Below, one piece after another: positions 1-63,207 of a stretch of 64,000 nt of DNA; the first letter of the stretch is position 1; each line of letters begins with the position of its first letter. The stretch spans positions 1,152,001 to 1,216,000 of the forward strand of contig NZ_JAFP01000001.1 in NCBI RefSeq assembly GCF_000526195.1. The letters run 5' to 3'. Source of the stretch: Hippea sp. KM1. GTDB lineage: Bacteria; Campylobacterota_A; Desulfurellia; Desulfurellales; Hippeaceae. The notes under the pieces are model-generated. The model was not told the origin of the DNA and made no database searches. It saw only the letters and a list, made by a program, of their open reading frames with translations. Position numbers and translations under genes: made by a program.

Positions 1-861
1 ATGGAAAAAATCATAGAAATAGAAAGACTTGTCCCAATAGCATCGGAAGACCTAAAAAAACTGAAACATTTGTTGGAGAATATGGAAAAAAACAGAAAGC
101 CTGTAGTTGCCGCTATAGGTTTATATAACCACGGCAAGAGCTCAATATTAAACGCTTTGATTGACGATTTAGATAACAGAACTTTCAAAGTAGCCGACAA
201 AAGAGAAACAAAGAGAATAGAAATAAAAGATATGGATGATTTTGTATACATGGATACACCTGGTATAGATGCAAGGGAAGACGACGACAGAAGGGTTTTA
301 GACGCTGTCATGGATATTGATGCTATACTTTTTGTTCATAACCCTTCAACAGGTGAGCTTGCAAGCAAAGAAGTGGAGTTTTTACATCTGATTAGAAAGA
401 GTTTTAAGGATGTTAGAGAATTTGCAGATAGAACGATTTTTGTGTTGTCTCGTATAGATGAATTGGAAGAGGGTGAGGTTGAAAGGGTAAAAAATAAAAT
501 AAAAAGCCAAATAAAGGAATACTTAGGAGCTGATATTTACATAAAAGAGGTGTCGGCCAAAAGGTATTTTAAGGGTGTAAAGGAAAACAAAAATATTTTT
601 ATTGAAAAAAGTGGTATAGTTTCCTTGATGGATGCGATTTTTACTATAATTAGATTAAATGCTGACAAAATGATGGCTTCTAAAAAAGAGAAAGTTATAA
701 AAACCATAGATTCTATAATATCTAATTTAAACAGAAGAGCTAAAAAACTGTATAAAGAAGTAAATATTCTAACACAAGAAAAGCAAAAATTTGAGTCAGA
801 CATTTTTGAGGAATTGTGGCTAATAAATTCTACAATAGAAGAGTACAAGAAAGCTTTATAA
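1..861 (+). CDS. Dynamin-like GTPase, first gene of cassette
   Basis: Predicted GTP-binding protein of the bacterial dynamin/LeoA-like type, 286 aa. Residues 40-48 form a P-loop (GLYNHGKSS), residues 85-88 are the DTPG switch motif, and SRID at 150-153 stands where a canonical N/TKxD guanine-specificity motif is expected, so that motif is degenerate. Residues about 225-286 are charged and probably helical, as in the stalk of dynamins, but much shorter than usual. No signal peptide or membrane segment is visible. The reading frame starts at base 1 of the window, so any upstream start, promoter or further operon gene is unseen. It is followed after 12 nt by a small helical protein and then two larger GTPases on the same strand. 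Its role is not known; membrane-associated GTPase is the family expectation. Confidence 0.75.
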   Translation: MEKIIEIERLVPIASEDLKKLKHLLENMEKNRKPVVAAIGLYNHGKSSILNALIDDLDNRTFKVADKRETKRIEIKDMDDFVYMDTPGIDAREDDDRRVLDAVMDIDAILFVHNPSTGELASKEVEFLHLIRKSFKDVREFADRTIFVLSRIDELEEGEVERVKNKIKSQIKEYLGADIYIKEVSAKRYFKGVKENKNIFIEKSGIVSLMDAIFTIIRLNADKMMASKKEKVIKTIDSIISNLNRRAKKLYKEVNILTQEKQKFESDIFEELWLINSTIEEYKKAL

Positions 862-873
862 GTGGAGGATCGT

Positions 874-1302
874 ATGTTTATTATATATGATTTAGTTGAA
901 TACATTTATAATCAAATAAAAGAATTAGTTGACCCTGAGCCAACGCCAACACCGCCATCTCATGCCTATAGAAAGAAAGACGAGAGCGAGTATTTAAAAA
1001 GAAAAAAACAGGAAGAGGAGAGGCGAAGATATATATTAAGCAGGGAGTTGAACTCATACAAAAGCCAATCTGCTATATTCATGAAAAACAAATATGGAGT
1101 TACAATAAACTTTGAGCCCAGTGGGTCGGATATCCATGAGTTAGGCTCTAAACGTATAGACTTTAAAAATGTTTTTCTGGTGTCTGCAGGAGAACAATAT
1201 AAAAACCTTTGTTATGAGATAGAACAAAAGGAAAGCGAGTTAAAGAGGATAGTTGAAGCGATTAATGAATTAGAAAAAATTAAAAGGAGTATGCAGGGAT
1301 GA
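874..1302 (+). CDS. Small helical/coiled-coil protein of GTPase cassette
   Basis: Predicted 142 aa protein with no family that I recognise. The start chosen is ATG 874 because GGAGG lies five bases before it; an upstream in-frame GTG (862) overlaps that ribosome site. After a hydrophobic N-terminal stretch there is a Pro/Thr-rich linker (around residues 20-32), then a Lys/Glu/Arg-rich helix and a C-terminal heptad-like helix. It lies between two dynamin-like GTPase genes and its stop overlaps the next start (ATGA), so translational coupling is likely. By context it could be a partner, or the detached helical arm of the short GTPase upstream. This is inference only. Confidence 0.6.
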   Translation: MFIIYDLVEYIYNQIKELVDPEPTPTPPSHAYRKKDESEYLKRKKQEEERRRYILSRELNSYKSQSAIFMKNKYGVTINFEPSGSDIHELGSKRIDFKNVFLVSAGEQYKNLCYEIEQKESELKRIVEAINELEKIKRSMQG

Positions 1303-3074
1303 ACACTGAGGTAATGGAGAAATTTTATAGGGGAATAGAGGAAATAAGTGTTCATTCAAAGGATTCCCAGGCATTTCTTGAGAGGATAAATAAGATACTG
1401 GAAGGTTTCTCCAAAAAAGTGGAAGCAACTGATATAGCGCGCAGTTTAAGAAAAAATAGGGACATGTACGAACTGGCAACCAATGTTTTAGAGAATATAA
1501 AAAACGGTGTAAATGCTTGGAATGCAGAAATAAACAAATTAATCAAAGAGGAAAAGCTCAGGGAGGAGCTTAGAAATGAATTTGTTGTTATAATCTATGG
1601 TAAAGTGAAAGCAGGGAAAAGCACGCTTGGCAATTTTGTAGCCAAAAACCCAATCAGCAAAAAACTTAATAAAAAGCCGTTCTTTTTTGTTTACGACAAA
1701 GCGGGTAATAAACAAAGTATAGAAGAGCTACAGGAAATAAAGGATGACTCAGGATTTAAGACGGACACTTTGGAATGTACTTCGGAAATACAGGGTTTTA
1801 AGCTTGATGGGTTAGCTTGGATTGATACGCCTGGTTTAGCGTCTATGAATAAGGAAAACGGCGAACTGGCCAAACAGTATATAAACGCAGCCGATTTTAT
1901 AATCTTTCCTACTTCTTCTGATTCGCCTATGCAAAGAACAGAAATGAAAGAAATAGGCGAGCTAATAGAGTACAACAAGGTCTTCTATATTGTGATTACA
2001 AAATCAGACACATTTGAAGAAGACGAAAAGGATGGTGAAATTGTTAAGATAATCGTCAACAAAAGTCCAAGCACACGCAAGGCCCAAGAAGAAGATGTAA
2101 GAAAAAGGCTTAAGGAAGAGATAAATGATGTAAAGGATGAGATATTGAAAAATATAATATCTATCTCTGTTTTAACTGCAAAGAAAGGGCTTGAAGAAAA
2201 CAACGAAGAGTTGTTCGAGGGGAGCAATATAAAAGAATTCTATCATCTTATGAATGAAAAACTGGTTAAAAAGGCCGAATTTGTTAAAAAAAGCTCAAGA
2301 GAAGAAAGAATAGGAGGATTTATAGAAAATACCGTACTTGAAAACATAAGCAATCTAAAAAAACAGCTCACTTTTCTCGATGAGAAAAAGGCGGAAATAA
2401 GAAAAAAACTTGAGAGACTAAAGAGCGATTCGGTAAACGATGTTTATCAAATTGTAAACTTTGTTGTAGCTAAAAAGAGAGGAGAAATAGAATCTACGAA
2501 TATCAAGTTAAAGGTAAAAGAGATAGTTAAAGAGGTTAACGATGAAATTAAAGGTTTTACGATAGATAATTTAAAAAGTGTTTTTGATGAGTTCGATCAA
2601 GCATTGCTCAATTTTAGTATCAATCTCGATCCAGAAAAATACAAGATAAAAGAAAAGCATGAGAAGATAGAGATTTCAAGAGAAAAAGTATACAAGGATG
2701 TAGGTGGAGTTATTGGTGGAGCTATTGGTGGAGTTATTGGTGGAGCCATAGAAGGAGCTATTGTGGGATCAGAAGCAGGGCCAATAGGCACAATAATTGG
2801 TGGCGTAGTAGGTTTAATCATGGGAATGCAAGCTGGTAAAGCTGTTTCCACAACAAAGGTAGAAACAATAAAAATCGGTGATACAAAAGAAGAAACGCTG
2901 GCAAAACTAAGAGAGGATCTTATCAAAACCAAAACTGAAGAGGTTCAAGGTGCTTATGACTATATTTTGGAGAGCTTTTTGTACGAAATTGATAAAGCGA
3001 CACTCAAAATACATGAGTTGATAGAGAATTTTGAAAATGAAATGAATAGGTTATTGCAAGAAATAAGGGGGTGA
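1299..3074 (+). CDS. Dynamin-like GTPase with glycine-zipper segment
   Basis: Large GTPase, 591 aa. An N-terminal helical region (1-92) precedes the G domain: P-loop GKVKAGKS at 101-108, DTPG at 176-179 and an intact G4 motif TKSD at 234-237. Residues about 330-460 are long charged helices. About 467-511 is a striking Gly/Ile/Val repeat (VGGVIGGAIGG and similar), a glycine zipper of the kind that inserts into membranes. A final helical region follows. This order (helix, GTPase, helical stalk, membrane segment, helix) matches bacterial dynamin-like proteins, where the segment acts as a membrane paddle. The gene overlaps the previous one by 4 nt and is followed by another GTPase after 3 nt, so the proteins may work as a hetero-oligomer, as described for LeoABC of enterotoxigenic E. 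coli. Function here is inferred. Confidence 0.75.
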   Translation: MNTEVMEKFYRGIEEISVHSKDSQAFLERINKILEGFSKKVEATDIARSLRKNRDMYELATNVLENIKNGVNAWNAEINKLIKEEKLREELRNEFVVIIYGKVKAGKSTLGNFVAKNPISKKLNKKPFFFVYDKAGNKQSIEELQEIKDDSGFKTDTLECTSEIQGFKLDGLAWIDTPGLASMNKENGELAKQYINAADFIIFPTSSDSPMQRTEMKEIGELIEYNKVFYIVITKSDTFEEDEKDGEIVKIIVNKSPSTRKAQEEDVRKRLKEEINDVKDEILKNIISISVLTAKKGLEENNEELFEGSNIKEFYHLMNEKLVKKAEFVKKSSREERIGGFIENTVLENISNLKKQLTFLDEKKAEIRKKLERLKSDSVNDVYQIVNFVVAKKRGEIESTNIKLKVKEIVKEVNDEIKGFTIDNLKSVFDEFDQALLNFSINLDPEKYKIKEKHEKIEISREKVYKDVGGVIGGAIGGVIGGAIEGAIVGSEAGPIGTIIGGVVGLIMGMQAGKAVSTTKVETIKIGDTKEETLAKLREDLIKTKTEEVQGAYDYILESFLYEIDKATLKIHELIENFENEMNRLLQEIRG

Positions 3075-3077
3075 AGT

Positions 3078-4589
3078 ATGGAAAATGGCTTGATAAACAA
3101 AAACTACTATCTTGAAAAAATCGAAAGTATAAAAAAATGTTTGCCAGGAGATTCTGATGTTCTCGAATTAGAAAAAAAGGTTAGAGAGAAACTTGAGGAA
3201 TTCAGACCTTATTTAATGGTCTACGGCATATATAATTCTGGAAAAAGCACATTAATAAACGCCCTTTTTGGAAGAGATGTGGCCGAGGTAGATGATGTGC
3301 CAAAAACTGATAAGGTGCAGAAATATGAAATTAACGGTGTTATCATTTATGATACGCCAGGAATCGATGCACCTATAGAACATGAGAGGGTAACAGAAGA
3401 ACATCTAAAAAAATGCGAAGTAGTGCTTTTTGTGATGAGCAGTGATGCCTCTTTTGAAGAGAGAAAAGTTTATGAGAAAATAATAGAAATTTTAAAGATG
3501 AATAAGAAGGTCATAATTGTTCTAAACAACAAAAGTGGTGTTGATAACAAAGAAGGACAAAGAATGCTTAATAGAATCGAGGGAAACTTAATTAAAGTAA
3601 TGAACGAAACGGGTTTTAAGTCTGATAATATAGAAAGTTATTTTGTTAACCTAAAAAGCGCTTTAAAAGCAAAAAAAGAGAACAAGGAATTATTATTAGA
3701 GAAAAGCGGGATAAGGACCCTTGAACAAGCCATAGTAAAGGCAGCTATGCAATCTAAAGAAAATATATTGACGACCGTAGAAAACCTCATTTCTAATTTT
3801 ATTAGTGATAAGATAGAATCTCTAAGCAATCAAATAGAAGATGCAGTATTAAAAGAAAAAGAAAGGGTGCCATTAAGCATAAGAAAAGGAAAGGAAAGGG
3901 TGAAATACGAGGCTTTTGCTTTAATTGAGAAGAAAATCATAGATATGAGGGAAAAGATTAGAAGCTTGTTGTTAGAAAATACGGATTCTTACACTTTAGA
4001 AAACTACATTAGAAAAGAAATATTGGAAATACAGAATGAAATTTCCAATAAATTACAACAATCATCCGAATTTATTCTGGGCGAGGTAAATCTAACCATT
4101 AAAAAATTAGAGGAATTAGAAAACCAATTAGGTGGAGAAGACTCTGGAATAGGAGAGTACATTGAGAGTGGCTTGAAAGTGCTAAAAAACAAAGAAGTAA
4201 CCCAAAAAGGCCTATATTCTCTTCTTTTAAAACTAAGAGAATTTAAAGTACCTGGAATTAAAGGAAGGTGGAAAAGAACGCTTACTAAATGGGCAGGAAA
4301 ATGGGCCCAGCGCTTGGTAGTAATTTTTTCTATTGTGGAAATTGGTATTTCAATCAAAAAGCAAATGGACATGGAGAAAGAATTAAGAGAAAATATGATT
4401 AGAGCTAATAGTTTAGCAAGAGAGATAACCAATGAGATTGAAAATAATTTGAAGTCGTTTATTGAGGAAGCTATAAATGAATCTTACGGACCTATAGAAG
4501 AGCAGCTCGAGACTGAAATTTTATCACTAAAAAGTGAAAAGAACGAAGTAACAAGTAGAATAGATTGTCTTAAAAGTGTAGGGTTATAA
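3078..4589 (+). CDS. Dynamin-like GTPase with a membrane segment
   Basis: GTPase of 503 aa. P-loop GIYNSGKS at 50-57, DTPG at 92-95; the G4 position reads NNKSG (150-154), not NKxD, so nucleotide specificity is uncertain. Residues about 225-345 and 430-500 are predicted helices, and one hydrophobic stretch (about residues 412-430, RLVVIFSIVEIGI) could span or insert in a membrane. The P-loop region resembles the first GTPase of the operon (GLYNHGKS), suggesting old duplication, while the third gene is more distant. The start is ATG 3078 with an AAGGGGGTGA ribosome site. It is the last gene of the cassette; a hairpin at 4681-4713 probably ends the transcript. The cassette borders a CRISPR locus on the other strand. 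Confidence 0.72.
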   Translation: MENGLINKNYYLEKIESIKKCLPGDSDVLELEKKVREKLEEFRPYLMVYGIYNSGKSTLINALFGRDVAEVDDVPKTDKVQKYEINGVIIYDTPGIDAPIEHERVTEEHLKKCEVVLFVMSSDASFEERKVYEKIIEILKMNKKVIIVLNNKSGVDNKEGQRMLNRIEGNLIKVMNETGFKSDNIESYFVNLKSALKAKKENKELLLEKSGIRTLEQAIVKAAMQSKENILTTVENLISNFISDKIESLSNQIEDAVLKEKERVPLSIRKGKERVKYEAFALIEKKIIDMREKIRSLLLENTDSYTLENYIRKEILEIQNEISNKLQQSSEFILGEVNLTIKKLEELENQLGGEDSGIGEYIESGLKVLKNKEVTQKGLYSLLLKLREFKVPGIKGRWKRTLTKWAGKWAQRLVVIFSIVEIGISIKKQMDMEKELRENMIRANSLAREITNEIENNLKSFIEEAINESYGPIEEQLETEILSLKSEKNEVTSRIDCLKSVGL

Positions 4590-4802: not shown

Positions 4803-4839
4803 GCTGATAAACCACCATTCAATGTACTCTTTAGTCTAC
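4803..4839 (-). repeat. Degenerate CRISPR repeat beyond the array's old end
   Basis: A 37-nt stretch aligns with the array repeat. It keeps CACCATTC, TACTC, AGTC and the final AC, about two thirds identity overall, and matches the array's 'TTCAAC' variant better than the main one. It lies 152 nt from the first clear repeat, a gap too long for one spacer and not a multiple of the repeat-spacer unit. It is best read as a decayed relic of an older, longer array. Confidence 0.5.
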
Positions 4840-4840
4840 G

Positions 4841-4942
4841 CTACATCATAATTGGTGATTTTGCACCAGGATATTTAATTCTAAAAAGTATCAGACCGGC
4901 AACACCAGTCACAATAATTGCTATCTTCACAGCAGTCTTCAT
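4841..4942 (-). CDS. Possible 33-residue single-helix membrane peptide
   Basis: A short frame beginning ATG at 4942 with a good ribosome site (AGGAGGTG, then 4 nt) and ending TAG at 4841. The product is 33 aa: a short basic N terminus (MKTAVK), one hydrophobic helix (IAIIVTGVAGLILF) and a basic tail. This is the usual shape of small membrane peptides, including type I toxins and phage peptides, but no family is recognised. It lies between the decayed repeat and the first intact repeat of the CRISPR array, on the array's transcribed strand. It could be a real small gene, a relic of foreign DNA, or chance. Confidence 0.35.
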   Translation of the reverse strand: MKTAVKIAIIVTGVAGLILFRIKYPGAKSPIMM

Positions 4943-4991: not shown

Positions 4992-6607
4992 ATCTCGAAA
5001 TCACCATTTAACATACTCCCCAGTCGACCCGCTGTCTTCTTTGAGGCTCCTCTTTATAAAAATAGGTTTTATGTCTCGAAATCACCATTTAACATACTCC
5101 CCAGTCGACTCGAATAAAATTTTAGAGGAGGTGTCAGAATGGTGAATTCGTCTCGAAATCACCATTTAACATACTCCCCAGTCGACATGTATTCTGGACC
5201 AGAGGATTTCTTACTTAGTTTGAGAAAAGTCTCGAAATCACCATTCAACATACTCCTCAGTCGACTGCTCTTTCTGGACGAGTTGACAAATATCGACCGT
5301 CCAGACACGTCTCGAAATCACCATTCAACATACTCCTCAGTCGACTTCTAGAGCAGAGGATTTCTTACTTGGACTTCAAAAACTGTCTCGAATTCACCAT
5401 TCAACATACTCCTCAGTCGACAAACCCTTGAGAAGGACTCAAGCCTTCTCGGGGATAGGATTGAGGTCTCGAAATCACCATTTAACATACTCCTCAGTCG
5501 ACTTTCATTCGAAGAACTGCTCCACAGTTTACGGATGCTGAGACTTGTCTCGAAATCACCATTCAACATACTCCTCAGTCGACCTGGAGCAAGGAGTTTG
5601 AGCATCTGGGGGATTTGGTCAACTTGTCTCGAAATCACCATTCAACATACTCCTCAGTCGACAAAGTTCTTGTTACCACTGACAAATTGCCTCCTGATAT
5701 GTCTCGAAATCACCATTTAACATACTCCCCAGTCGACTCTAACGGATTCCTCAATATGGATTGGGAGAGAGCATATCAAGTCTCGAAATCACCATTTAAC
5801 ATACTCCCCAGTCGACAGAAATGGTTCAAGACAGGGTTCTATGTAGGAGTTGTTACATCTGTCTCGAAATCACCATTTAACATACTCCCCAGTCGACGGG
5901 TCAACTGCAAAAAGTCAAAGAGGAACACTATACAGACGTGGTGTCTCGAAATCACCATTTAACATACTCCCCAGTCGACAATGATTGCTATGTATATTAT
6001 CCCTAAAATCACCCAAGTGTCTCGAAATCACCATTTAACATACTCCCCAGTCGACGAAGAAAACACTTGGTGAAGTCCCTTACGGGATTATAGCAAGTCT
6101 CGAAATCACCATTTAACATACTCCCCAGTCGACCAACAATCTTGATAGAGTTGAAATATTTGCTTCGTAGGATCGAGTCTCGAAATCACCATTTAACATA
6201 CTCCCCAGTCGACAAAAGTTGATGATGTTGTAATGTTATTAAACAAATTGTTGTATTGTCTCGAAATCACCATTTAACATACTCCCCAGTCGACTGTTCG
6301 GAGCCATTATTGGATCCACAGAGCTGGACGAGGAAACGAAGTCTCGAAATCACCATTTAACATACTCCCCAGTCGACAATATGGATTCTACGTGGGTACT
6401 GCTATAACAACAATCCGTCTCGAAATCACCATTTAACATACTCCCCAGTCGACAAAATAAACTAAAGGAGGTGTTTTGAATGAGGCCGTTAGACGTCTCG
6501 AAATCACCATTTAACATACTCCCCAGTCGACGAGATCTCGAGACAAAGATTTATTGATTTTATTAAAAAAGTCTCGAAATCACCATTTAACATACTCCCC
6601 AGTCGAC
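4992..6607 (-). CRISPR. CRISPR array, 21 repeats of 37 nt and 20 spacers
   Basis: Direct repeats of 37 nt on the + strand begin GTCTCGAAAT and end AGTCGAC; spacers are 38-46 nt. Repeat starts are 4992, 5073, 5150, 5229, 5309, 5385, 5466, 5547, 5626, 5701, 5780, 5861, 5943, 6019, 6097, 6177, 6258, 6341, 6417, 6495 and 6571. Transcription is probably on the - strand: read that way the repeat ends TTCGAGAC, similar to the 8-nt 5' handle of type III crRNAs, a promoter and leader lie just right of 6607, and the cas genes are on -. The newest spacers are then at the right. The first repeat has A for G at its first base. Repeats 4, 5, 6, 8 and 9 carry TTCAAC/CTCCTC instead of TTTAAC/CTCCCC, and repeat 7 is a hybrid. 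A Cmr (III-B) system adjoins. Confidence 0.97.
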
Positions 6608-6621
6608 TGGTGTTATAACTA

Positions 6622-6650
6622 AGCATAATGCAAATTGCCGATTTTTTCAA
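6622..6650 (-). promoter_or_regulatory. Likely promoter of the CRISPR array
   Basis: On the - strand, TTGAAA (6650-6645) and TATGCT (6627-6622) are separated by 17 nt, close to the sigma-70 consensus. Transcription would begin within a few bases of the first repeat (ending 6607). This supports right-to-left transcription of the array. Confidence 0.5.
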
Positions 6651-6685
6651 ATCAATGGTTCTTGTTGTTTCTATGCAGTGATAGA

Positions 6686-7008
6686 AAAAAGTTGGAGAAT
6701 GTATGCCTAAATTCATTTTCAAACCCTGCATTCTGGGCATGTCATTTTCAGATATTGGCGTTTTGACAACAAATTAACTTTTGAAAAAGTTAGAGAATCA
6801 CCTTGTAAGATACAAAATAACCCTCGATTCTCCAACTTTTGCAAAAACACCCCTTAGAAAATGGCGTCAAATCAACATCCAAAAATCGCAAAAATCAAAA
6901 AGTTGGAGAATCGATTTTCAGAAAGACAAAAATATGGGATTCTCCAACTTTTTTGAAGCGATAACGAAATTATGTAAAAAATAAGGGGTAAAAAAGTTGG
7001 AGAATCGA
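6686..7008. repeat. Six copies of a 16-nt motif in the CRISPR leader
   Basis: The motif AAAAAGTTGGAGAATC occurs at 6686-6700 (+), 6784-6799 (+, one mismatch), 6826-6840 (-), 6897-6913 (+), 6938-6954 (-) and 6990-7008 (+). Copies two/three and four/five form two inverted pairs spanning 57 and 58 nt, so each could fold into a 15-16 bp hairpin with a 26-nt loop. The sequence between arms is not conserved. The whole AT-rich stretch 6608-7013 separates cas2 from the array and contains no convincing gene. The role is unknown: protein-binding sites for spacer integration or array transcription, or two copies of a small mobile hairpin, are both possible. Confidence 0.8.
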
Positions 7009-7013
7009 AACCG

Positions 7014-7286
7014 TTATACAAAACCATCAAAACCACAGAAAACACCGCCATTAGAATGAAGTAAAAATGATTTTTCAACACAGCTTTTGCAGATGTGGTA
7101 AAACCTAATATTATCTCTTCTTTTGCTAACGCTTTTTAGCTCCCTCACAAGCTCTTTTAGTTGCGTCTTGTTAAGCTCAACCTCAAAAACAGAGAAGTTT
7201 ACCCTGATACCATAGCCTTCAAGTATTGAAGCGACCTTTTTTCTTCTTTTGTCATCGTCTATATCGTAAGCAATAAGAAAAAACAT
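7014..7286 (-). CDS. cas2: CRISPR-associated endonuclease Cas2
   Basis: Cas2, 90 aa, the dimeric partner of Cas1 in spacer capture. The N terminus has the ferredoxin-like Cas2 pattern, YDIDDDKRRKK followed by GYGIRVNFSVFEV. The C-terminal tail has two closely spaced Cys (ICKSC), not usual for the core fold. The start chosen is ATG 7286, which shares its A with the TGA stop of the RT-cas1 gene (TGATG), implying coupled translation; an in-frame TTG one codon upstream is less likely. It is the last cas gene before the leader. Confidence 0.92.
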   Translation of the reverse strand: MFFLIAYDIDDDKRRKKVASILEGYGIRVNFSVFEVELNKTQLKELVRELKSVSKRRDNIRFYHICKSCVEKSFLLHSNGGVFCGFDGFV

Positions 7287-9400
7287 CAATACCTTCCAAT
7301 AAAGGGCCTGTATTTTTTATCTTTTAAAATAGCATCCTTGAGCCTTAAAGCCTGCATAAATATGACATTTTCCAACTTTCTTTGCTCCTTTCTGTAGATA
7401 GTATAACTTGCAAGGCGTTCGTAAATGTTTTTTGAGATGTTCTTTTTTGACTCCAGTGTAAGCTTACCCTCCAAATCAACCTCTATTTTTTCGTTTTTAT
7501 TAATCATGGAAAAAATGGTTCTATCAACTATGTAAGTTCTAAATTCCTCAATCAAATCGAATACCAGCGTTGGTTTGGTAGAATCAAGAGTATGTAGGTA
7601 TGAAATATGAAGAGAAAGGCCAGCATAGATTAAAGCCTGCCTTATTTTGCCGTATAGTATGGCATAGCCGTAATTTAAGGCTGAGTTAATTTCATCCTTC
7701 GCATCCTTTGTTATCCTTGAGAAATCCCTTTTTATGACTTTTGAGATGGCCTTCCAATAAAGATTTGAGCCGCCGCCTTCTATACCCATTAAAGAGTTTA
7801 TATCTCTTGCTTTTTCAGCCTTTTTTATAGATTGGCTGAGCCCATTTATTTCTATGTCCAATATATCGTGGTATTTGTTTAGGTACTTCAAATAGTTTTT
7901 CTGATTTTTGAGTTTTCCTAAAACAAAGGATTTTGCAATCTCAAGTTGCTTCGGTGTTCCTAAAATAATTGCTTGCTTGTGTATATTTTGATGCGTTGAA
8001 GCCTTGTAGTAGCTAATACTTGCATAAGGAAAGTGCTTTTTATCAATAAAATCCAAAAAAATCTTCTCTTTTGCACATCGATAAATGACATCGCTACTTA
8101 AAAGAAAACCCCTTCCTTCAAAAATTATCCTTTCGACCTTTTTAATAGGAAAGGATTTTACCACTCTCCTGTTTTTCTTCAAAACAAGCTTATTCCTACT
8201 AACACCCAGCATAACGCCAAATCTATTGACATGGATTACGGATGAGGCAAGGAGCCTTTTCTGGGTTTCAACCTTCTTCTTTTTTATCTTCTGATCTACC
8301 GTTATGAGTTTATTGTGGGCTTTTTTCAAACATAGATTTATTACGCCTTGTTTATTTGTAAACATGTTCAAAAATAGAATATTTTTAGATTTCTCTCTGA
8401 GTTTGCTCTTTGATGCTACAAACCCTTTCGTTTTTGAAATAATCATAGCGTTTGTAAGAGACTCAATAACGGCAGATTTAATGAATTTGTTATCTGGTGA
8501 GATTCTTAGGTAATAATTTTTTAAAGCTGTAAAGTATGTGTTCATCTTCTCTACATACTCATCAAACGGTAAACGGGAGTAGTCTTGAAGTTTCTGTTGG
8601 ATTCTTTTTACTCTTTCTTTATCAATTGTCCTGAATCTGTTTGTAAAATAGGCTCCTAAAAAAGCAAAGCCGGAGTCGGTTGTGGTTATATATGTCTTTT
8701 CCTCATTCAGACCCAGTTTATAAACCTTTAGAAATCTCTTTAGGTTTCTGTGGATGAGTTCAATTCTATCGTGCGTCTTTGCAAAAACAACAAAATCATC
8801 GGCAAATCTAACAAAATTAAATCCGTGTCTCTCTAAAAACTTGTCCATCCTATCAAGATATATATTTGAAAGTATGGGAGATATTATATTGCCCTGATGA
8901 ACACCAAGATTATGATCCTCATATTCCAAATTCTTAACAGTTCCAATTTTTATATACATCATAATCAAATCTATCAGACTATCATCTTTTATTTTCTCTT
9001 TAAGCATGCAAATCAAAAGGGAGTGGTCAATTGTCTCAAAGAAATCTTTTATATCTGTTTTAAGCACATATTTTTCGCCCCTTTTTATGTAGTCAAAGGT
9101 TCTATTAACCGCCTTTAGTGGTCCTTTGTTTGGCCTGTAAGCATAGGATTTATCTGAAAATGAAGAATCAAACAGTTCTGTTAGATATTCGTGAAGCAAT
9201 GCCTGTACGATTTTATCCTTTTTTGAGGCTATTGTTATGGGTCTTATCTTATCGTGTTTTTTTAACTCTATTTTTTGAGGGGGTTCTGGTATATAAGTAG
9301 AATTTTGGAGAGCTCTAAATAGGTTCTCTATTTCCTTTTCTGGTAAATGTATTTCTCTTTTTAAAGAAACTCTTTTTAAATTCTCCCTGGTAAATATCAT
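7286..9400 (-). CDS. cas1: Reverse transcriptase-Cas1 fusion
   Basis: A 704 aa fusion of a group II intron-type reverse transcriptase (about residues 1-330) and Cas1 (about 375-704). RT residues are intact: KTDIKDFF with Asp116, QGNIISPILSN at 169-179 and FADD at 199-202. The Cas1 half keeps the MGIEGGGSNLYW glutamate region (about 538) and the LVFDLIEEFR metal-binding region (about 615). In studied systems (Marinomonas type III-B) RT-Cas1 with Cas2 captures spacers from RNA as well as DNA, so that activity is expected here. There is no N-terminal Cas6 domain, unlike some relatives. The start has GAGGGTGTGA before ATG and lies 86 nt inside the end of the upstream CARF gene. Confidence 0.95.
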   Translation of the reverse strand: MIFTRENLKRVSLKREIHLPEKEIENLFRALQNSTYIPEPPQKIELKKHDKIRPITIASKKDKIVQALLHEYLTELFDSSFSDKSYAYRPNKGPLKAVNRTFDYIKRGEKYVLKTDIKDFFETIDHSLLICMLKEKIKDDSLIDLIMMYIKIGTVKNLEYEDHNLGVHQGNIISPILSNIYLDRMDKFLERHGFNFVRFADDFVVFAKTHDRIELIHRNLKRFLKVYKLGLNEEKTYITTTDSGFAFLGAYFTNRFRTIDKERVKRIQQKLQDYSRLPFDEYVEKMNTYFTALKNYYLRISPDNKFIKSAVIESLTNAMIISKTKGFVASKSKLREKSKNILFLNMFTNKQGVINLCLKKAHNKLITVDQKIKKKKVETQKRLLASSVIHVNRFGVMLGVSRNKLVLKKNRRVVKSFPIKKVERIIFEGRGFLLSSDVIYRCAKEKIFLDFIDKKHFPYASISYYKASTHQNIHKQAIILGTPKQLEIAKSFVLGKLKNQKNYLKYLNKYHDILDIEINGLSQSIKKAEKARDINSLMGIEGGGSNLYWKAISKVIKRDFSRITKDAKDEINSALNYGYAILYGKIRQALIYAGLSLHISYLHTLDSTKPTLVFDLIEEFRTYIVDRTIFSMINKNEKIEVDLEGKLTLESKKNISKNIYERLASYTIYRKEQRKLENVIFMQALRLKDAILKDKKYRPFIGRY

Positions 9401-15238: not shown

Positions 15239-16465
15239 CTACTTCACCTTCTCAAAATTATTTAGCATCCCTTTTAGTTGCCCAAAATCTTTAGAGCCGT
15301 GATATTCTTTATCGACATATTCATCGAGCTTTACTTCAGATACATACCTAAAGAAATCATCAAAATCAAAATCCTCAAGAACCTTAATTTTAAAAGGCTT
15401 ACAATCAATAAATTTGCCCGTTGCTTCTATTTTTAGAGATGTTCCAAGAAATTCATCCAGTCTCTCTTCTTTTCTCCAATCCATAAAGAAATACACATCG
15501 AAACCATTTGATACTTTAATTGGTTTTATGGTGATAGGTGATTTGAATCTTTTTATTTTTCCACTTTGGTCAATTTTTTTAATATAAGCTGAATAAGTAA
15601 ACCACCTTTCATTTGAAGATAAACCAAAAATATCCCTAATATCCCTTTTTTTATCACCCGATTTTAAAACATCGCTGTATGGATAATTTTTTGCTTGAGA
15701 TACAAGAGCATCCGAAAAAAAGTTTTGCTTTATAACCCTCTTTTCCCATTCTATATCAGGAAATATTTTCTTCACATAGGAAAATACTGCTGGTTTGCAG
15801 TAAAAAACCGTTATTCTACTTTCTTTGGTTTTGTTAAAAGAAACTCTATTTATACCTTGCCTTAAGAATCTATAAAATAAATCTACATCTTTCAACGCTT
15901 CAATCCAATCGCTTTTGTTGATTCTCAGCTTGTAAACAAAACCATCTATAAGATTTGGCTTAAACTCTTTATCAGCTAAATAAAAGCTTCCATAACCCTT
16001 ACTCTGTCTTGTGCCAAAATTCGTGCTTGCTAAAAACGCCTCAAAATTATTCTCAATACAGTCCAATAAGGTCTTGTTAAAACTAAAAAAGGAAACGGTT
16101 ATCTTAGACAATGACCTCGAAAACCACTTTTCATGCGGTTTCTTGTAATTTTTATCGGCTTCAGAATAATTCTTGGGTGGTTTCTTATTACCAAGATTTC
16201 CAAAGTACAACGGTGTTTTCTTCTCGATCCCTTCAATTTTTATATTGTTTGCTTTAACAAAAACCTTGTATCTGTATTTGGTCTTAAACTTAATGAGATC
16301 ATCTTTATTTTTTGGATCACCTGCATCCAGAAAATCTTTACATTTGACCAGAAGAAACTTATCCAACTTAGACTTAAGCTCTGTGGGTCTAATTGTTGCG
16401 TTCTCGAGATTCTCAAAGTGAATTAGCGGGGTGTGTTGTATTAAGGAAAAATCTTTTCTATACAT
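15239..16465 (-). CDS. cmr1: Type III-B RAMP protein Cmr1
   Basis: Cmr1, 408 aa, the tandem-RAMP subunit at the 3' end of the crRNA in the Cmr complex. The N terminus SLIQHTPLIHFENLENATIRPTELKSKLD (residues 7-35, shown across the Cmr1 signature) and the later GTRQSKGYGSF loop are characteristic. It is the first gene of the cas operon; GAGG lies six bases before the ATG. About 150 nt upstream separate it from the divergent tRNA-Asn gene. Confidence 0.9.
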   Translation of the reverse strand: MYRKDFSLIQHTPLIHFENLENATIRPTELKSKLDKFLLVKCKDFLDAGDPKNKDDLIKFKTKYRYKVFVKANNIKIEGIEKKTPLYFGNLGNKKPPKNYSEADKNYKKPHEKWFSRSLSKITVSFFSFNKTLLDCIENNFEAFLASTNFGTRQSKGYGSFYLADKEFKPNLIDGFVYKLRINKSDWIEALKDVDLFYRFLRQGINRVSFNKTKESRITVFYCKPAVFSYVKKIFPDIEWEKRVIKQNFFSDALVSQAKNYPYSDVLKSGDKKRDIRDIFGLSSNERWFTYSAYIKKIDQSGKIKRFKSPITIKPIKVSNGFDVYFFMDWRKEERLDEFLGTSLKIEATGKFIDCKPFKIKVLEDFDFDDFFRYVSEVKLDEYVDKEYHGSKDFGQLKGMLNNFEKVK

Positions 16466-62491: not shown

Positions 62492-63207
62492 TGTATCTCC
62501 TCAAAATCAAAAACAGGTCCATCAACGCAGACCTTTTTGTATCTATTGTCTGATGTTTGAACAACACAACCCAAACACACACCTATGCCACATGCCATCC
62601 TCGATTCAAGCGAAACCTGCATAGACGAATTCTTCTCAAAACACAAAAATGCAAGCCTCTTTAACATCAGCGTCGGCCCGCAAGCATAGACAAGTGTATT
62701 CTCATCAAGCGCACCCTCAACCATATCCACAACATTGCCCTTAAAGCCGAAACTGCCATCCATTGTTGCTATGTTTCCATTCCTTGTGAATATCTCATCA
62801 GAGCTATTGAAACCAAAATAGGCATCACACTCTATCCTGTAAGTCTCCTCTATGGTTTTTTTCAGATACAGAAGCGGGGCAACGCCTATGCCTCCACCAA
62901 CAAGCAAAAGCCTCTTTGTCGAATTTATACTAAAGCCCTTCCCCAAAGGGCCTAAGGCATCAACAAACTCTCCGGGCTTTTTGGTGGTTAAGATCTTCGT
63001 GCCCTCACCTACAACCCTATAGATAAACTCAAGATAATCACCAAAATCCGCTACGCTAAACGGCCTCCTCAATAAAGGAAAAGGATAAGCATTGATCTTA
63101 ACCATAAAAAACTGCCCCGGCTCAACATCAAACAGGGCCGGATTCTCCAACTTCAGGGAATAGGTGTTCTTTGCAACCTCTACATTCTCAACTATCTTTA
63201 GTCTCAC
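62476..63207 (-). CDS. pyrK: Dihydroorotate dehydrogenase electron-transfer subunit
   Basis: 243 aa FAD/[2Fe-2S] protein. RPFSVADFGD is the FAD site, GGGIGVAPL the NAD-binding loop, and MACGIGVCLGC with a later Cys (KKVCVDGP) the iron-sulfur site. Passes electrons from PyrD to NAD. Overlaps greA by 4 nt. Confidence 0.95.
   Translation of the reverse strand: MRLKIVENVEVAKNTYSLKLENPALFDVEPGQFFMVKINAYPFPLLRRPFSVADFGDYLEFIYRVVGEGTKILTTKKPGEFVDALGPLGKGFSINSTKRLLLVGGGIGVAPLLYLKKTIEETYRIECDAYFGFNSSDEIFTRNGNIATMDGSFGFKGNVVDMVEGALDENTLVYACGPTLMLKRLAFLCFEKNSSMQVSLESRMACGIGVCLGCVVQTSDNRYKKVCVDGPVFDFEEIQWQAL

What the first reader, a model, noticed from the sequence alone, without database searches (positions are those of the whole stretch)
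4992..6607. Apparent strand bias: crRNAs antisense to coding sequence
Every spacer has at least one open frame on +, and the informative ones (homologous sets, ribosome sites, and spacer 4, which reads LFLDELTNIDRPD like a Walker B segment) all point the same way. Open frames alone prove little at 40 nt, but these internal signals agree. The bias fits a type III system, which needs RNA targets, and either RNA-derived capture by RT-Cas1 or selection afterwards.
Basis: partly seen in the sequence, partly recalled or inferred. Interest (0 to 1): 0.7.

Follow-up and report, generated by a model that had tools for sequence, protein, structure and literature searches.

The report
Type III CRISPR spacers antisense to genes
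The immune memory of this bacterium's RNA-targeting CRISPR system is stored almost entirely in the orientation that recognises messenger RNA of unknown invaders; this is expected for such systems, but here it can be shown without finding the invaders, and the memories pile up on a few gene positions.

Summary
The array is real: 21 repeats, 20 spacers at 4992-6607. Three arrays in this genome share a leader on the right side only, with a promoter-like site pointing into the array, so crRNA is inferred to be the reverse complement of the + strand. Internal evidence was extended to 35 spacers of the genome plus 6 from another genus with the same repeat. In the six best-supported homologous sets all members share one orientation, and a + frame is the conserved one. 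All three Shine-Dalgarno-plus-ATG spacers read +. A codon model gives 31 of 41 spacers + (p=0.0015; estimated fraction 0.84, CI 0.66-0.98); the genome's own type I-B array is even (20 of 44). The window array alone is not significant by codons (14 of 20, p=0.12), and 'every spacer has an open + frame' is false for spacers 2 and 19. The bias is the published norm for type III (65% on average, 88% in Moraxella III-B). Selection versus RNA capture stays unresolved. Less expected: homologous spacers pile up as if drawn from about 3-4 kb of sense sequence.

The parts
4992..6607 (-). CRISPR array, 21 repeats of 37 nt and 20 spacers of 38-46 nt; transcription inferred on -
6608..6825 (-). Leader, conserved on the right side of all three arrays of the genome; left flanks unrelated
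6622..6650 (-). Promoter-like TTGAAA-17-TATGCT in the leader, pointing into the array (consensus match only)
4894..4910 (-). Terminator-like hairpin beyond the leader-distal end of the array (consensus match only)
5110..5149 (+). Spacer 2: Shine-Dalgarno AGGAGGTG and ATG read on +
5187..5228 (+). Spacer 3, homologous to spacer 5 (PEDFLLSLRK / AEDFLLGLQK); 16 identical bases
5346..5384 (+). Spacer 5, homologous to spacer 3
5503..5546 (+). Spacer 7 (FIRRTAPQFTDA), homologous to spacers A2_3 and A2_6 of the second array
5817..5860 (+). Spacer 11 (KWFKTGFYVGVVTS), homologous to A2_9; weaker links to spacer 18 and A2_2
5898..5942 (+). Spacer 12; shares 15 identical bases with A2_14, which carries a Shine-Dalgarno site and ATG
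5980..6018 (+). Spacer 13 (MIAMYIIPKITQ), homologous to spacer B_4 in a genome of another genus (LVLMYIVPKITQ)
6134..6176 (+). Spacer 15 (TILIELKYL), weaker homology to A2_5 (TLLVEAKYL)
   Evidence: score 34, within the range of shuffles
6378..6416 (+). Spacer 18 (YGFYVGTAITTI), weaker homology to spacer 11
   Evidence: score 29
6454..6494 (+). Spacer 19: Shine-Dalgarno AAGGAGGTG and ATG read on +
6532..6570 (+). Spacer 20 (RFIDFIKK), weaker homology to A2_3 (RLINFIKR)
   Evidence: score 27
7014..7286 (-). cas2
   Evidence: (PF09827), reading frame
7286..9400 (-). RT-Cas1 fusion, 704 aa
9315..10493 (-). Card1-like CRISPR ancillary nuclease
   Evidence: PF09002
10504..15236 (-). cmr6, cmr5, cmr4, cmr3, cmr2/cas10
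   Evidence: Cmr5 just under and Cmr3 below the curated cut-off
15239..16465 (-). Probable cmr1 by position; no family match
   Evidence: none

Best explanation
[quoted passage not shown] Most and possibly all spacers are in this orientation. The most likely cause is that only a crRNA complementary to an expressed transcript protects, so wrongly oriented spacers are lost with their cells, perhaps helped by a modest orientation preference of RT-Cas1 when it copies RNA. Shown here: the shared leader side, the orientation of 15 spacers (20 with weaker cases), and the absence of the bias in the type I-B array of the same genome. Inferred: that the array is transcribed as stated, that the bias arises by selection, that the targets are viruses, and that the system is active.
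For: Leader on the right of all three arrays with promoter-like site. Homologous spacer sets unanimous in orientation and conserved in a + frame. SD+ATG 3 on +, 0 on -. Codon model 31/41 +, I-B control 20/44. III-B effector genes present. Literature: type III needs crRNA antisense to RNA (PMC5576922); selection gives strong bias in Thermus (PMC7515739); natural type III spacers 65% coding, Moraxella III-B 88% (PMC8482600).
Against: No protospacer found, so no direct strand count. The codon estimate leaves room for up to about a third of spacers in the other orientation. Leader-proximal spacers are as biased as old ones, where selection alone might leave some unsorted recent spacers. Array transcription was not observed.
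Confidence: 0.65

Rival explanations
1. The bias is made at acquisition: RT-Cas1 captures transcripts and integrates them in a fixed, functional orientation.
For: RT-Cas1 is present and is the only uninterrupted Cas1 in the genome. Newest spacers are as biased as old ones. Spacers over Shine-Dalgarno sites are compatible with mRNA sources.
Against: In Marinomonas, RT-Cas1 acquisition is only marginally oriented and nearly half of new spacers would be useless (PMC5576922).
Confidence: 0.2
2. The targets are small RNA viruses of the positive-sense kind, so that only one strand is coding and the orientation follows from the source molecule.
For: Overlap of spacers fits an effective one-strand pool of about 3-4 kb. 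No match in DNA collections. The paper PMC10847044 states that some RNA viruses of prokaryotes are targeted by RT-containing type III systems and that hot-spring RNA viruses have Shine-Dalgarno sites before nearly every gene.
Against: The viral-contig search was narrow and exact, so absence is weak. Hot spots on a DNA phage explain the clustering as well. PMC5513706 found no RNA phage matches to RT-linked spacers. A double-stranded RNA or replicating genome would offer both strands.
Confidence: 0.1
3. There is no real bias: the agreement is chance and selective reading of open frames.
For: Window array alone 14/20, p=0.12; nine of 35 own spacers score negative.
Against: Homologous sets and SD sites do not depend on the codon model and are unanimous. 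Spacers scoring negative include ones fixed as + by homology (13, A2_9). The I-B control is even.
Confidence: 0.04

Closest known systems
Marinomonas mediterranea MMB-1 type III-B with RT-Cas1 (PMC5576922)
   Same: III-B effector with an RT-Cas1 fusion and Cas2; crRNA must be antisense to RNA to work.
   Different: There newly acquired spacers are nearly evenly oriented; here the standing array is strongly one-sided. Acquisition was not measured here.
RT-linked type III-B arrays of Arthrospira platensis (PMC5513706)
   Same: RT-linked III-B spacers with almost no traceable protospacers, distinct from the pool of the other system in the same cell.
   Different: Here homologous spacers hit the same protein positions repeatedly and the coding strand could be read from them.
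Natural type III arrays in general; Moraxella III-B (PMC8482600)
   Same: Bias toward the coding strand, 65% on average and 88% in Moraxella III-B.
   Different: Those were counted on mapped protospacers; here the direction is inferred from the spacers alone. The estimate is 84% (66-98%).
Thermus thermophilus type III arrays under phage infection (PMC7515739)
   Same: Strong strand bias and strong positional bias.
   Different: No RT there and selection was demonstrated; neither selection nor its absence is shown here.

Membership tests
Type III-B CRISPR-Cas | Cas10/Cmr2 with Cmr3, Cmr4, Cmr5, Cmr6 | tested here: met
   Cmr2, Cmr4 and Cmr6 over their curated cut-offs; Cmr3 (8.6e-12) and Cmr5 (3.4e-6) below theirs.
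Type III-B CRISPR-Cas | Cmr1 | tested here: inconclusive
   The 408-aa gene in the expected place has no NCBIfam or Pfam match.
RT-Cas1 adaptation module | Group II intron-like RT fused to Cas1, with Cas2 adjacent | tested here: met
   RT at residues 21-306, Cas1 at 389-699; Cas2.
RT-Cas1 adaptation module | Acquires spacers from RNA | not testable with these tools
   Needs an acquisition experiment.
Type III array with coding-strand bias | Most spacers yield crRNA antisense to transcripts | tested here: met
   with type I-B control; inferred from spacers, not from mapped protospacers.
RNA-virus-targeting CRISPR array | Spacers match an RNA virus and are absent from DNA | tested here: inconclusive
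   No match in the DNA collections searched; no RNA virome was available.

The most novel reading that the evidence does not exclude
The III-B arrays record a distinct, small target pool, possibly RNA phages, sampled repeatedly at the same few gene positions from diverged relatives, by an adaptation module that inserts RNA-derived spacers in the functional orientation from the start.
Probability: 0.12. Interest if true: 0.8.

Novelty: new member of a known kind. Interest (0 to 1): 0.42.

Why it matters
Coding-strand bias in type III arrays is known, so the finding itself is a clean further case. Its value is that direction can be read from homologous spacers without any protospacer, with a type I array of the same cell as control. 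The repeated sampling of the same protein positions gives peptide probes for fishing the unknown targets out of DNA and RNA viromes, which bears on the open question of where RT-linked spacers come from.

Tried and rejected
Protospacer search: all 35 spacers against phages by blastn, chance hits only; the window array against plasmids, chance only; concatenated translations against phages, none, and against the 25 held genomes of the class and phylum, only the arrays themselves apart from one weak match of 17% identity in G021 that is not a protospacer; seven degenerate patterns and one alignment search over viral contigs, none. These scans need exact matches to a few peptides, so they are weak evidence of absence. 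Chimeric peptides against PHROGs, Pfam and PDB: nothing convincing (DUF5380 at E=0.03 is below its cut-off). RT-Cas1 in genome contigs: one remote partial hit. A related RT-Cas1 locus (G006, L043) gave 8 spacers, +13.9 bits, too few to conclude. Open-frame counting was rejected as a test because most spacers are open on both strands. Shared acquisition with the I-B system was rejected as explanation: spacer length (41.4 versus 36.1), GC, strand bias and targets differ.

Full report
What is there. The window holds a CRISPR array of 21 repeats and 20 spacers. To its right, all on -, lie cas2, an RT-Cas1 fusion, a Card1-like nuclease and the cmr genes of a type III-B system. The whole genome, one contig of 1.74 Mb, holds two more arrays of the same repeat: one with 14 spacers ending about 5.9 kb to the left of this array (L009) and one with a single spacer (L010). 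A genome of another genus of the same family carries the same repeat with six further complete spacers (L042).

Direction of the crRNA. About 215 nt are conserved on the right side of all three arrays and the left sides are unrelated, so the leader is on the right. A promoter-like TTGAAA-17-TATGCT in the leader points into the array, and a terminator-like hairpin on - follows its far end; both are consensus matches only. The degenerate terminal repeat is at the left end in array 2 and in L042. The crRNA is therefore taken as the reverse complement of the + strand. This is inference from anatomy; no RNA was seen.

Coding direction, test 1: homologous spacers. A six-frame comparison of all spacer pairs gave ten +/+ scores of 34-49. 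One -/- score of 34 is another reading of the top pair. Opposite-strand scores reach 29. Dinucleotide shuffles reach 39 at most in 60 trials, so the top four scores exceed all shuffles, while those of 34-38 are individually within reach of chance and count through their pile-up in +/+. The same test on 44 type I-B spacers gave nothing above 31. The six best-supported sets are 13/B_4, 7/A2_3/A2_6, A2_7/A2_8, 11/A2_9, 3/5 and 12/A2_14; the last two are supported by 16 and 15 identical bases. Over the ten aligned pairs, differences fall at codon positions 1/2/3 as 36/18/52 in the + frame, and the chosen + frame outscores every - frame in every pair. The pairs were picked for their + frame scores, so this second point is partly built in; the third-position excess is not a free choice in the same way. 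Seven members beyond the first of each set agree in orientation, which by chance is 1 in 128 before the coding direction is considered.

Test 2: starts. A Shine-Dalgarno site followed by ATG occurs in spacers 2, 19 and A2_14 on +, never on - and never in I-B spacers; 0.18 are expected by shuffle.

Test 3: codon model trained on 45 genes of the window (88% correct on held-out 42-mers). Window array 14/20 (p=0.12), own arrays 26/35 (p=0.006), all 41 31/41 (p=0.0015), I-B 20/44 (p=0.65). Maximum-likelihood fraction + is 0.84 (0.66-0.98), and 0.42 (0.22-0.62) for I-B. The model fits these targets imperfectly: spacer 13 scores -5.3 although homology fixes it as +. The true fraction may be higher than the estimate, but a minority in the other orientation is not excluded.

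Spacers 2 and 19 have no fully open + frame. Open frames are common on both strands. The Walker-B reading of spacer 4 is plausible but adds nothing on direction.

What the targets are. None was found anywhere searched. The viral-contig scans needed exact degenerate matches and covered few peptides, so this is weak. III-B and I-B spacers share no target at peptide level and differ in GC and length.

Clustering. Six pairs of own spacers overlap on homologous proteins, most by 27 nt or more. If spacers were drawn evenly from one strand, the pool would be about 3-4 kb; at 10 kb the chance of six or more such pairs is 0.025 and at 20 kb none of 400 trials reached it. Either the target is tiny or acquisition or selection favours a few positions. 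Weaker similarities suggest that six spacers (A2_2, 11, 18, A2_9, A2_5, 15) tile one stretch of about 34 codons, and four (20, A2_3, A2_6, 7) another; the tiling was put together by eye.

Mechanism. Type III interference needs crRNA complementary to RNA, so selection for oriented spacers is expected, and it was shown in Thermus (PMC7515739). For RT-Cas1, measured acquisition is only marginally oriented (PMC5576922). Natural type III spacers are 65% coding on average and 88% in Moraxella III-B (PMC8482600). The present arrays lie at the high end of a known trend. The evidence here cannot separate selection from directional capture. Newest spacers being as biased as old ones mildly favours early selection or directional capture.

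Verdict. The strand bias is real and ordinary in kind. The concentrated, untraced target pool is the part worth following.

Noticed in passing
window 6688-7006 and the leaders of the other two arrays (C1:1151182-1151500, C1:866148-866259): The motif AAAGTTGGAGAATC, in both orientations, occurs 15 times in the genome with up to one mismatch and 14 of these lie in the three III-B leaders. The remaining one is in the window at 63141-63154. It could be a leader-binding or integration signal.
   Followed up: partly
L067:10499-16292 (C1:476499-482292): Type I-B-like array of 49 repeats with 44 unique spacers and a segmental duplication; its cas1 is interrupted by a transposase gene, leaving RT-Cas1 as the only uninterrupted Cas1.
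   Followed up: partly
window 1-4589: Three GTPase or dynamin-like genes and a small gene on + lie between the second array and this array, a possible further defence module.
   Followed up: no
window 5232-5662: Repeats 4 to 9 carry variants (CTCCTC, mostly with CAAC) that are also typical of arrays 2 and 3, which hints at exchange between arrays.
   Followed up: no
window 4809-4839: A diverged repeat-like stretch (AAACCACCATTCAATGTACTCTTTAGTCTAC, 74-81% alike) left of the array may be an old leader-distal repeat remnant.
   Followed up: no
L042:1-533: The same repeat occurs in a genome of another genus of the family at a contig end; one of its spacers (B_4) targets the same protein position as window spacer 13.
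   Followed up: yes
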